Translations under genes and position numbers: made by a program
The notes under the pieces: generated by a model
Seen by the model: only the letters and a program-made list of their open reading frames with translations
What the model was told of the DNA's origin: nothing
The model's database searches: none
Virus record (IMG/VR): IMGVR_UViG_3300007509_000022
Span: 1-37,804 of that record
DNA: 37,804 bases
Direction: 5' to 3' (one strand)
Source of the DNA: a virus
In this document: one piece after another, positions 13,727 to 17,183 of the stretch
Numbering within the stretch: position 1 is the first letter of the stretch
Layout of the letters: every line of letters starts with the position of its first letter

Positions 13727-13895
13727 TCTTTGGGAAAAAACTAAAGACCCTATATATAGAGATTTGTGGTATAAATTTGTTAAGGAGTTTGCAAATGGAA
13801 GAGTTGGTACATTGGATGATGATTTATGTGATGAACGCAGAGGAACTAATAATAAAAGTTCCACTGGAGTTTGCACGACCAATGACCCTACTTGA
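13695..13895 (+). CDS. Small protein with KLDELANLWEKTKD motif (66 aa), GTG start
   Basis: A GTG at 13695 with GGAAGGAAGACAG just upstream is preferred over a TTG at 13674 because the ribosome site fits and the conserved sequence (TTKKLDELANLWEKTKDPIY) begins there. The first 35 residues look like a real helical domain (DLWYKFVKEFANG). The last 30 are of low complexity and overlap the next gene by 101 nt in another frame, so the C-terminal part may be only a by-product of that gene's sequence. Unknown function. Confidence 0.6.
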   Translation: MTTKKLDELANLWEKTKDPIYRDLWYKFVKEFANGRVGTLDDDLCDERRGTNNKSSTGVCTTNDPT

Positions 13896-14052
13896 ATGTT
13901 CGGGTTATGCGGATGCACATAGAGAAGCGGTGTCTGTGTATAACGAAGAATTAAATAGATGGGTCATGAACGATGGATCGGGGAGCTGGTTTGGTCATCA
14001 ATGTTTTCAAGACCCAAGCAAGATGTTTAAGGTACCACATAATATTAAATGA
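13795..14052 (+). CDS. Conserved unknown protein (85 aa)
   Basis: ATG 13795 follows a perfect AAGGAG site seven bases upstream; longer starts in this frame (TTG 13777) lack a ribosome site. The N-terminus is hydrophobic (LVHWMMIYVMNAEELIIKV), then LLECSGYADAHREAVSVYNEELNRW and a Gly/Ser-rich aromatic stretch DGSGSWFGHQCFQD. Two cysteines could pair if the N-terminus serves for export. Function unknown. It overlaps the previous gene by 101 nt and the next tiny ORF by 4 nt. Confidence 0.65.
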   Translation: MEELVHWMMIYVMNAEELIIKVPLEFARPMTLLECSGYADAHREAVSVYNEELNRWVMNDGSGSWFGHQCFQDPSKMFKVPHNIK

Positions 14053-14135
14053 TGTTTATAAGCTTTGGACTGATATGCATAATTTATTTATTTATAGTTC
14101 TACTTTTATTAATGTGGAACAACGAACAAGTTTGA
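14049..14135 (+). CDS. 28-aa transmembrane peptide
   Basis: ATG overlaps the preceding TGA (ATGATG). The product is one hydrophobic segment (FISFGLICIIYLFIVLLLLM) with a short polar tail WNNEQV. It is like the other one-helix peptides of this region. No family assignment possible; overlap with the previous stop is the main support. Confidence 0.4.
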   Translation: MMFISFGLICIIYLFIVLLLLMWNNEQV

Positions 14136-14138
14136 AAA

Positions 14139-14250
14139 GGACCGGCGTCCAAATAATGCCTCGCGCTATTCCCTGTACGTCAAGCGATGACCCGAAAGGG
14201 TAGCCTCGGAGCCTTTGCTCGCCTAGGAGTACGTGCACGGAAACTAGGTG
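14139..14250 (+). ncRNA. Candidate GC-rich three-way-junction RNA
   Basis: A GC-rich stretch in AT-rich surroundings. CCCTGTACGT (14171-14180) pairs with ACGTGCACGG (14231-14240) through nine pairs, one of them G-U, with one C-C mismatch. It encloses ACCC/GGGT closed by a GAAA tetraloop (14190-14201) and a longer hairpin with GAGC/GCTC (14209-14212 with 14217-14220) extended by CCT/AGG (14204-14206 with 14225-14227). A separate small hairpin GGAC-CGGC-GTCC lies at 14139-14150. No T-tract follows. The ACGGAAACTAGG piece slightly recalls the glutamine-riboswitch core, but the rest of that motif is missing. A 25-codon ORF covers the same bases, so coding constraint is an alternative explanation. 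Confidence 0.4.
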
Positions 14251-14264
14251 GGTTGTATGATTAA
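14187..14264 (+). CDS. Possible 25-aa cationic peptide
   Basis: ATG 14187 opens a frame whose residues look protein-like: TRKGSLGAFARLGVRARKLG then GLYD. It is glycine- and arginine-rich and would form a short amphipathic helix. There is no good ribosome site, and the start lies in a hairpin-prone region. Another short frame (MPRAIPCTSSDDPKG, 14156-14203) precedes it in a different frame. Low confidence; it competes with the structured-RNA reading of the same region. It overlaps the 3' end of the minus-strand gene by 4 nt. Confidence 0.35.
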   Translation: MTRKGSLGAFARLGVRARKLGGLYD

Positions 14265-14494
14265 GCAGGTTTTCCTTTTTTAGGAAAATCTTTTTCTTCC
14301 ATGCAGAAAAATTTTATTATAGTTCCATATTTATTAACTTCTTTGGGACCGATCTCTTTAGCTTTTTTAATGGCTTCATTATAACCTGCTATCATGCATT
14401 CATAATGAGTAGGGTATATTTCCGGCAGAGTATGGGGAGGTAAACACTGCTGATATACACTGGTACAAATAATCATACTTAATAAAAATTTCAT
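14261..14494 (-). CDS. Small exported cysteine-containing protein (77 aa)
   Basis: A lone minus-strand gene. Starting at ATG 14494 it has a short signal peptide (KFLLSMIICTSVYQQ) followed by CLPPHTLPEIYPTHYECMIAGYNEAIKKA and then EVNKYGTIIKFFCMEE. I recognise the CLPPH...Y-x-C-M-x-A-GY-x-E-A pattern with a final IKFxC from small exported proteins in marine phages. Three cysteines suggest disulfides in the periplasm. Function unknown. It converges with the tiny plus-strand ORF and its start overlaps the plus-strand promoter at 14494. A GTG six bases upstream is an alternative start. Confidence 0.75.
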   Translation of the reverse strand: MKFLLSMIICTSVYQQCLPPHTLPEIYPTHYECMIAGYNEAIKKAKEIGPKEVNKYGTIIKFFCMEEKDFPKKGKPA

Positions 14495-15205: not shown

Positions 15206-15890
15206 GAAAGGAACAGAAGTTAAATACCAGGTCCTTCAATGGGGTCCTTGTATTGTTCATTTAAAAATTTCTGAAGATTTTCAACAGAAGTTATTAAAAG
15301 GTGGAGAAGAAGCTAGAAAAAAGAATAAAGATTTTAGATCTAATCTAGCTGGAATCATTAAAGAAGAATATGCTTATGAAGATAGAAAAGATTATGTAGA
15401 TGAAATTGCACAATTCTTAACTGTCTATGATGCAGCTTATCAGAAGTGGAAGAATGAAGAGTATAAAGTAAAGCCTGAATATATTTTAAATTCTTTATGG
15501 ATTAATTACATGAAGAAGAATGAATATAATCCACCTCATGATCACTCAGATTATTTAAGCTTTGTAATATTCTTAAAGGTACCAGAAGAAATAACCAAGG
15601 AACAGGAAGAGTTTGTAGGAAACTCGGCTGGACCCGGAAGTTTATCTTTTTTGTATGGTGATGGCAATAGACAATCTATTACTTATCAATCAGTTAAACC
15701 TAAAGAACGAGACATCTTTATATTTCCTGCATGGATTAAACATTACGTTGCACCTTTTTATTCTGATGTAACTAGAATCTCTGTCTCTGGTAATATTATG
15801 GATTCAGTAAAGATTAACCAGGTTAGAATAGCTAACGAGCTCGCAGCTAAACAAGCAGATAAATTAAAGAATCCACATGAAGGAAAGTGA
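15192..15890 (+). CDS. 2-oxoglutarate/Fe(II)-dependent oxygenase (232 aa)
   Basis: The double-stranded beta-helix signature is clear: NPPHDHSDYLSFVIFLKVPE gives the HxD pair His118-x-Asp120, and FPAWIKHYVAPFYSDVTRIS gives the distal His184 and the 2-oxoglutarate-binding Arg195. The pattern is that of the putative 2OG-Fe(II) oxygenase family PF13759, common in marine T4-like and other phages. These enzymes hydroxylate protein, nucleic acid or small molecules; the substrate here is unknown. The start ATG lies in the end of the preceding gene. The 3' end overlaps the homing endonuclease by 14 nt. Confidence 0.88.
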   Translation: MVKNEKGTEVKYQVLQWGPCIVHLKISEDFQQKLLKGGEEARKKNKDFRSNLAGIIKEEYAYEDRKDYVDEIAQFLTVYDAAYQKWKNEEYKVKPEYILNSLWINYMKKNEYNPPHDHSDYLSFVIFLKVPEEITKEQEEFVGNSAGPGSLSFLYGDGNRQSITYQSVKPKERDIFIFPAWIKHYVAPFYSDVTRISVSGNIMDSVKINQVRIANELAAKQADKLKNPHEGK

Positions 15891-16311
15891 TATTTCATAC
15901 ATAGCCGGACTCTTTGATGGGGAAGGTAGTATTCATTATAAGCAAGCACCAGAAAAGAAAAAGAAACATAAAGGTAAAGGTTATAGAATGTCTAACTCTT
16001 GGCGTATCAGTATGGAAGTAACCATGACTGATCCTATGGTAATTAACTGGTTAAGGGAGACTTTAAAGGTTGGCACAGTTACAAAGAAGCCTCGTAAAGG
16101 ACTTCGTAAAGATGGTACTAAATATTTAATGCAGTATAGATGGCGTTGTACTTTTAGGGATGCTTATTATGTTTGTAGATTAATTTGGCCTTGGTCTAAA
16201 ACTAAACTACACAAAGTAGAACAGATCATAGATCACTATTCAGATCATGGAATTGTGAAGGATAAGGTGGTTGATCTAAATGAATATAGAAAGGTTATGA
16301 GTCTTGAATAA
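15877..16311 (+). CDS. LAGLIDADG-type homing endonuclease (144 aa)
   Basis: The N-terminus SYIAGLFDGEGSI is a textbook LAGLIDADG motif with the catalytic acidic residue, followed by a basic beta region (KKKKHKGKGYRMSNSWRISMEV), NWLRETLKVGTV and RWRCTFRDAYYVCRLIWPW. One motif only, so it would act as a homodimer. It is free-standing: no group I intron or intein is visible around it, and it overlaps the 3' end of the oxygenase gene. Such genes spread by cutting related genomes that lack them. ATG at 15877 follows AAAGAATC within the oxygenase gene. Confidence 0.9.
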   Translation: MKESDISYIAGLFDGEGSIHYKQAPEKKKKHKGKGYRMSNSWRISMEVTMTDPMVINWLRETLKVGTVTKKPRKGLRKDGTKYLMQYRWRCTFRDAYYVCRLIWPWSKTKLHKVEQIIDHYSDHGIVKDKVVDLNEYRKVMSLE

Positions 16312-16468: not shown

Positions 16469-16638
16469 TGTATTATAAATTTTTAGTATGGTTGATGGGA
16501 ATTGCAGGTTCTATTAGTTCATGGGCCTGGAGAGAACATGTTAAAATTTTAAAACGTATACAGGACATTGAACATAAAAAATTGATTCTAAATCAAAAGA
16601 AGCAAGAATACTTAAGAGGGTTAATTAATAAAGAATGA
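16468..16638 (+). CDS. Membrane-anchored helical peptide (56 aa)
   Basis: Begins in the previous stop (TAATG) and ends in an ATGA overlap with the HNH gene. A short N-terminal hydrophobic segment (YYKFLVWLMGIAGSISSWAW) is followed by a basic coiled helix (HVKILKRIQDIEHKKLILNQ). Function unknown; coupled spacing supports it as a real gene. Confidence 0.6.
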   Translation: MYYKFLVWLMGIAGSISSWAWREHVKILKRIQDIEHKKLILNQKKQEYLRGLINKE

Positions 16639-17183
16639 AAAAATTAGAATTGTTTTTTCCGAGACTATTAAAAGATACCTATGTTATTCATTCGACAGGG
16701 GGATATCATCCTTTTAGAAATGTAGAAGATGCAGCACCTATTTTTAAAGAAGATTGTTGGCCTTATATTCAACGAATTCATTGGCCGGTTACTACAGATC
16801 GAGCGAATAAATGGCGACAAGAAAATAAACCTAAACAAATAAATTTAAATATATCTTTTAGACACATGTATCCTTATCATAGTTTTTCTGGTGAGAATAC
16901 AAGGGAAATACGTATAAAGAATCGTAAACCTAGAGTCACTCATAAATCCCTTTATATTAAAATGCACAGTGCTGTGGCAAAAGCTTTTATTCCTAATCCT
17001 GAAAACAAGCCTCAAGTTTGCCATCTAAATGATGACCCTTTAGATTATCGTGTAGAAAATCTAAAGTGGGGAACTAATCAGGAGAATCATACCGGTAGAG
17101 GTGGAGACAGGCAAAGTAAAAAAGATTATGCTTTGATTCATTCTATCTTTAAAATGAATGGTTGGGCTAAAGGAGAGAAATGA
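16635..17183 (+). CDS. HNH homing endonuclease (182 aa)
   Basis: The C-terminal part carries an HNH domain: SAVAKAFIPNPENKPQVCH, then LNDDPLDYRVENLKWGTNQE and NH. The HL-N-D-D-x-x-D-x-R-x-x-N-L-x-W-x-x-x-x-x-N pattern matches HNH_3-type phage endonucleases, and the N-terminal 90 residues resemble NUMOD-like DNA-contact sequence (aromatic, basic). Free-standing, with no intron seen. It lies 0.3 kb after a LAGLIDADG enzyme of a different family and overlaps the exonuclease gene by 4 nt. Confidence 0.85.
   Translation: MKKLELFFPRLLKDTYVIHSTGGYHPFRNVEDAAPIFKEDCWPYIQRIHWPVTTDRANKWRQENKPKQINLNISFRHMYPYHSFSGENTREIRIKNRKPRVTHKSLYIKMHSAVAKAFIPNPENKPQVCHLNDDPLDYRVENLKWGTNQENHTGRGGDRQSKKDYALIHSIFKMNGWAKGEK

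What the first reader, a model, noticed from the sequence alone, without database searches (positions are those of the whole stretch)
14139..14264. GC-rich three-way-junction RNA overlapping a 25-codon ORF
A GC-rich island contains a long closing helix (9 of 10 positions paired), a GAAA-capped hairpin and a third helix, while also encoding a protein-like cationic 25-mer from ATG 14187 and a 15-codon frame before it. Either a new regulatory RNA, a peptide-coding riboregulator, or a small toxin-like peptide with a folded message.
Basis: partly seen in the sequence, partly recalled or inferred. Interest (0 to 1): 0.6.

Follow-up and report, generated by a model that had tools for sequence, protein, structure and literature searches.

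The report
Pelagiphage folded RNA with self-pairing loop
The stretch is a real ~120-base non-coding RNA of a marine phage group related to viruses of the ocean bacterium SAR11; it belongs to a catalogued RNA family of unknown function, does not encode the suggested peptide, and its end loop looks built to pair with a second copy of itself.

Summary
It is a member of Rfam RF02976 ('Flavobacterium-1' RNA; 75.5 bits, cut-off 58.9), function unknown. About 178 distinct homologues show an RNA selected for structure: helices P1, P2 and P3 form a three-way junction, followed by hairpin P4; all are kept by compensatory changes. The 25-codon peptide is rejected: its frame runs 2 to 65 codons in relatives. 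The family is misnamed: its only true hit among 84,980 prokaryote genomes is a phage-like contig; otherwise it sits in HTVC027P-like pelagiphages, including isolate HTVC027P. New here: (1) the P4 loop is self-complementary in 162 of 178 sequences through five different loops, and 10 more carry GACG, a known dimer-linking tetraloop, so kissing-loop homodimerisation is likely; (2) one copy per genome, at one of two sites; (3) it is an exchangeable cassette: close relatives lack it, or carry another subtype or site. Best reading: a trans-acting, homodimerising phage sRNA, target unknown. RNA gene: near certain. Dimer and trans action: inferred. Stranded RNA-seq of HTVC027P infection exists and could test expression at once.

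The parts
14132..14259 (+). whole RNA gene, from the common NTGA to the common ATG(A); RF02976 member
   Evidence: CM hit 14136-14253, 75.5 bits; alignment edges
14136..14144 (+). P1 closing helix, 5' strand (pairs with 14207-14216)
   Evidence: 21 distinct 5' strands in the family pair better with their own 3' strand (-7.8 kcal/mol) than with swapped ones (-4.8)
14207..14216 (+). P1 closing helix, 3' strand
14145..14180 (+). P2 arm: GCGU-(C)-CA / UG-(U)-ACGU, with an inner hairpin and conserved UUCCC
   Evidence: GCGU/ACGU, CCGU/ACGG, GGGU/ACCU in 172 sequences; mismatch C.U in 131, A.G in 40
14184..14204 (+). P3 hairpin: 2-bp base, NNN-GA/UA internal loop (k-turn-like), GAAA cap
   Evidence: base GC/GC or CC/GG; NNN-GA in most sequences; GA/GA in subtype C'; tip length varies with pairing kept
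14218..14252 (+). P4 hairpin
   Evidence: stem changes are compensatory across subtypes
14228..14242 (+). AGUA...GAA module (sarcin-ricin/bulged-G-like) under the P4 cap
   Evidence: kept in nearly all subtype A and C sequences, about 95 of 178
14234..14237 (+). UGCA self-complementary apical loop, proposed kissing-dimer contact
   Evidence: UGCA 83, UCGA 12, UGAUCA 57, UGGCCA 7, GUGCAC 3, GACG 10 of 178 distinct sequences
14257..14259 (+). terminal ATG, kept in most homologues; here it lies beside the stop of a convergent gene and starts no long frame
   Evidence: ATG within 7 nt of P4 in 152 of 168 sequences (end of P4 found by a heuristic)
13777..14052 (+). upstream small phage gene, the usual 5' neighbour at site 1
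   Evidence: homologues present with or without the RNA
14261..14494 (-). convergent small, secreted-looking gene that bounds the RNA on its 3' side
   Evidence: homologues at the empty site; no Pfam match

Best explanation
It is a phage non-coding RNA gene (RF02976) that most likely acts in trans. Transcribed with the early operon (site 1, as in the window) or from a promoter upstream of a non-coding region (site 2, as in HTVC027P), it folds into a P1/P2/P3 three-way junction plus hairpin P4. Two copies then join through the self-complementary P4 loop, and the homodimer binds a host or phage partner that is not identified. Shown: family membership, selection on structure, one copy per genome, exchange between phages, palindromic P4 loop. 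Inferred: expression, dimerisation, trans action. Unknown: the target.
For: RF02976 hit. P1-P4 kept by compensatory change. P4 loop: 162 of 178 sequences carry one of five exact palindromes; UGCA to UCGA and UGAUCA to UGGCCA are double changes with no non-palindromic intermediates seen among subtypes A-D; 10 more carry GACG, which links retroviral dimers (PMC516450). GACG is not a DNA palindrome, which favours RNA pairing over a DNA site. Exactly one copy in each of the 20 long records over the cut-off, never at both sites; two sites, each with one orientation. About 31 downstream neighbour families and about half of the neighbours convergent, so no single cis target. At site 2 a promoter-like sequence lies about 300-360 nt upstream in about a third of B/D loci (20 of 62 B/D loci), and the downstream gene has its own promoter-like sequence in 27 of 62 (0.25% in shuffles).
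Against: No transcript data could be examined here. Dimerisation is inferred from sequence only, and the homologues are related, so counts are not independent. The ATG kept at the 3' edge and the snug fit between genes suggest some cis role. Phages with PolA at least 91% identical to the window's lack the RNA, so it is not essential to the group.
Confidence: 0.55

Rival explanations
1. A cis-acting operon element: the folded RNA insulates or processes the polycistronic mRNA between a stop codon and the next start, or sets translation of the gene beginning at its terminal ATG.
For: It often lies shortly after a stop codon and its terminal ATG is kept in 152 of 168 sequences; 57 of 152 have an ORF of at least 25 codons from that ATG. 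One subtype appears to have ATT where a relative has ATG at the same codon (L094/L109 against L108).
Against: 95 of 152 terminal ATGs lead to fewer than 25 codons; about half of the neighbours are convergent, including in the window; many downstream families; a separate promoter-like sequence before gp34 in HTVC027P. Cis action does not explain palindromic loops.
Confidence: 0.18
2. A small non-autonomous mobile RNA element, spread by a nuclease in trans, in the manner of HEARO or homing elements.
For: Clean presence/absence at the same gene junction; subtype reshuffled on the PolA tree, 27 changes against a minimum of 7; NTGA and ATGA at the edges of most copies; a LAGLIDADG gene and often an HNH gene nearby.
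Against: Never more than one strong copy per genome, only two sites, one orientation at each; the empty site carries no NTGA; edges not kept in subtype B. Homologous recombination explains the exchange as well.
Confidence: 0.12
3. A DNA element (palindromic binding site, origin or packaging signal) rather than an RNA.
For: Perfect DNA palindromes (CGTGCACG, TGATCA, TGGCCA); site 2 lies near the terminase genes.
Against: P3 and P4 stems covary with G-U pairs and length changes; fixed strand at each site; the GACG loop is not a DNA palindrome.
Confidence: 0.05
4. A peptide gene (25-codon cationic or toxin-like peptide) with a folded message.
For: An open frame from ATG 14187 to TAA 14264 exists in the window.
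Against: Frame length 2-65 codons across relatives, start lost in 25 of 153, P3 length not kept in multiples of three.
Confidence: 0.02

Closest known systems
Rfam RF02976, Flavobacterium-1 RNA
   Same: Covariance model matched end to end above the gathering score; same P1/P2/P3/terminal hairpin layout
   Different: The only true prokaryote-genome hit, evidently the family's namesake, is a phage-like (HTVC027P type) contig. Divergent subtypes fall below the cut-off (C' 38 bits) or were first reached with wider models (F). The palindromic loop and exchange between phages are described here from our alignments; no paper naming the family was found in the library.
Retroviral dimer-initiation hairpins (HIV-1 DIS palindromes; GACG tetraloops; PMC516450)
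   Same: Self-complementary or GACG apical loop on a covarying stem
   Different: No relation by descent; a small DNA-phage RNA rather than a genomic RNA; dimer not yet shown
Large homo-oligomeric RNAs (GOLLD, ROOL, OLE; PMC12286853)
   Same: Non-coding RNA, proposed RNA-RNA self-assembly
   Different: About 120 nt instead of several hundred; no Rfam hit to them
phi29-type packaging RNA
   Same: About 120 nt, three-way junction, loop-loop contacts (own knowledge)
   Different: No Rfam hit; pRNA uses two different complementary loops (own knowledge), here one palindromic loop; the window phage is of another group

Membership tests
Rfam RF02976 (Flavobacterium-1) | covariance-model score above the curated gathering score (58.9 bits) | tested here: met
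   75.5 bits, positions 1-121 of 121
Rfam RF02976 (Flavobacterium-1) | consensus helices formed | tested here: met
   alignment; compensatory changes
Rfam RF02976 (Flavobacterium-1) | flavobacterial origin implied by the name (not a formal criterion) | tested here: not met
   one true contig among genome-contig hits (L088, single-cell Flavobacterium SCGC AAA160-P02); it carries HTVC027P-like gp33 (87%), gp35 (89%) and TerS (74%)
HEARO / IsrB omega RNA | match to the HEARO model | tested here: not met
   no hit at E up to 5
HEARO / IsrB omega RNA | insertion beside a fixed target motif | tested here: inconclusive
   NTGA/ATGA edges common, but the empty site has none and subtype B lacks them
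phi29 packaging RNA | match to the phage pRNA model | tested here: not met
   no hit at E up to 5
kissing-loop homodimer (DIS-like; works like) | self-complementary apical loop kept through changes | tested here: met
   162 of 178 perfect palindromes plus 10 GACG
kissing-loop homodimer (DIS-like; works like) | dimer formed by the RNA | not testable with these tools
   needs native gel or cryo-EM

The most novel reading that the evidence does not exclude
The RNA is a swappable homotypic recognition device: each phage carries one copy with one of several kissing-loop types (UGCA, UCGA, UGAUCA, UGGCCA, GUGCAC, GACG), and the loop type governs interaction with co-infecting phages carrying the same or another type, much as antisense loops govern plasmid incompatibility.
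Probability: 0.1. Interest if true: 0.85.

Novelty: new member of a known kind. Interest (0 to 1): 0.5.

Why it matters
An orphan Rfam family gets a real home (pelagiphages, among the commonest viruses in the sea), an isolated phage-host pair to study it in (HTVC027P on SAR11 strain HTCC1062), published stranded infection RNA-seq to test it with, and a specific structural prediction (homodimer through P4). It also corrects the host implied by the family's name. If dimerisation holds, it adds a small, easily made natural example to the short list of self-assembling RNAs.

Tried and rejected
Peptide coding: frame not kept. Cis-regulation of one gene: neighbours too varied. HEARO-like insertion at NTGA: attractive at first because most copies are flanked by NTGA/ATGA, but the empty site lacks it. 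Own promoter at site 1: rate near that of shuffled sequence apart from four subtype-A loci with TTGACA-N16-TATA... Terminators right after the RNA: only 12 of about 170 loci by a simple scan. The MAFFT-wide RNAalifold consensus recovers only P2, because P1, P3 and P4 vary in length; helices were therefore checked by subtype. Phages HTVC023P, 023Pt_psg01, DSL-LC04, CRP-901 and MinM2 have no copy with two wider models. Genome hits L089-L093 and viral hits L096 and L099 are chance matches of the pattern. Literature: no paper in the library names the family together with RNA or Rfam; the 2017 discovery paper is not held.

Full report
What is there. The window is a 37.8-kb phage contig whose terminase, capsid and DNA polymerase are closest to Pelagibacter phage HTVC027P (65%, 83% and 64% amino-acid identity), a lytic HTVC023P-type phage of SAR11 strain HTCC1062 (PMC12753301). 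In a mostly AT-rich stretch, 14136-14253 matches Rfam family RF02976 (Flavobacterium-1 RNA) over its full length at 75.5 bits, gathering score 58.9. The fold energy of the single sequence is unremarkable (z -0.25), so the case rests on comparison.

Relatives. Pattern scans of IMG/VR and one of GTDB genomes gave about 170 distinct homologues, all in viral contigs except one: a 6.6-kb contig of the single-cell assembly Flavobacterium sp. SCGC AAA160-P02. That contig encodes HTVC027P-like gp33, gp35 and TerS at 87%, 89% and 74% identity, so the family's name reflects a phage, not flavobacterial DNA. HTVC027P itself carries the RNA (90.2 bits). The long records examined gene by gene belong to the same phage group with the same gene order.

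Structure. P1, P2, P3 and P4 are all kept by compensatory changes. P2: GCGU/ACGU, CCGU/ACGG, GGGU/ACCU; a C.U mismatch (131 sequences) is replaced by A.G (40). P1: 21 distinct 5' strands pair at -7.8 kcal/mol on average with their own partner, -4.8 with swapped partners. P3: base GC/GC or CC/GG, a NNN-GA internal loop that in subtype C' has the GA/GA of a classical k-turn (motif assignment from own knowledge), and a cap that varies widely in length. P4: freely changing stem, in subtypes A and C an AGUA/GAA module like that of the sarcin-ricin loop (own knowledge), and an apical loop. The loop is UGCA, UCGA, UGAUCA, UGGCCA or GUGCAC in 162 of 178 distinct sequences, all exact palindromes, and GACG in 10 (one printed TGATCA row, L256, is a match outside the loop and is counted among the six others). 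The changes UGCA to UCGA and UGAUCA to UGGCCA alter two bases and keep self-complementarity; while the stem below changes (UCC/GGA, CAC/GUG, UAC/GUA, UUCU/AGAA), the palindrome stays. GACG tetraloops are recognised dimer linkages in retroviruses (PMC516450). A DNA-binding palindrome would not explain GACG. The sequences are related, so these counts are not independent events; the argument rests on the number of different loops, not on the 162.

Peptide. The frame of ATG 14187 is not kept: lengths 2 to 65 codons, start lost in 25 of 153.

Place and mobility. Each of the 20 long records over the cut-off holds exactly one copy (two further records have one weaker copy). Site 1, used in the window, is on the early-operon strand between PurM and the LAGLIDADG/exonuclease genes; site 2, used in HTVC027P, is on the other strand between gp34 and gp35. 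Phages with PolA about 91% identical to the window's can lack the RNA: in G022 and G023 the stop codons of the two genes flanking site 1 overlap, with nothing between them. On a PolA tree of 63 phages the RNA subtype needs 27 changes (minimum 7, shuffled mean 37); for example L020 (subtype A) and G013 (subtype B, at site 2) are neighbours. The RNA is thus a cassette exchanged between phages, yet kept at one copy. About 31 families of downstream neighbour were counted and about half of the neighbours converge on the RNA (some are spurious ORFs), which argues against one cis target.

Expression. At site 2 the RNA is the last of a row of hairpins behind a promoter-like TTGACA...TATAT sequence about 300-360 nt upstream (20 of 62 B/D loci), and the next gene, gp34 in HTVC027P, has its own promoter-like sequence. 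In HTVC027P gp33 and gp34 form a separate expression cluster high at 6-9 h (PMC12753301). The same study made directional RNA-seq libraries (accession); its main text does not use the terms non-coding, intergenic or sRNA. I could not map the reads.

Reading. The RNA gene is near certain; trans action and homodimerisation are inferred and I put the combined reading at 0.55. The strongest unexplained feature is the ATG kept just after P4 even where no gene starts there (where the end of P4 was found by a heuristic). Novelty: the window copy is a new member of a known family; the palindromic loop, the single-copy exchange and the corrected home are, as far as the library shows, not described.

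Noticed in passing
window 21540-21180 (-); L110 17712-17390 (-): Site 2 of these phages holds a promoter-led non-coding row of hairpins. One, CUGAUCCCU-GAUCC...GGAUC-UGGGAUCAG with varying paired tips, occurs once to three times per locus, also in phages without the RF02976 RNA there; no Rfam family matches it in HTVC027P.
   Followed up: partly
window 21165-21110, 20825-20775, 20455-20380 (-); L110 17246-17190 and 16939-16885 (-): Arrays of CAAGC heptads directly before TTGACA...TATAGGAT-type promoter-like sequences. In HTVC027P they precede gp34 and gp33, the two genes of a separate expression cluster in PMC12753301, so they look like a phage-specific promoter class.
   Followed up: partly
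window 21225-21180 (-): A hairpin CAUACGUG...CACGUAUG followed by GGGUUAAUAUGA, the same 3' tail as the RF02976 RNA: perhaps a relic or a minimal relative at site 2.
   Followed up: no
window 14052-14134 (+): 27-codon, strongly hydrophobic ORF between the upstream gene and the RNA; similar short membrane-peptide frames start right after the RNA in some relatives (e.g. L024, L138).
   Followed up: no
L094 and L109 against L108: The gene after the RNA seems to begin with ATT in two phages where a close relative has ATG at the same codon.
   Followed up: no
window 15877-16311, 16635-17183 (+): A LAGLIDADG and an HNH_3 endonuclease gene near site 1.
   Followed up: no
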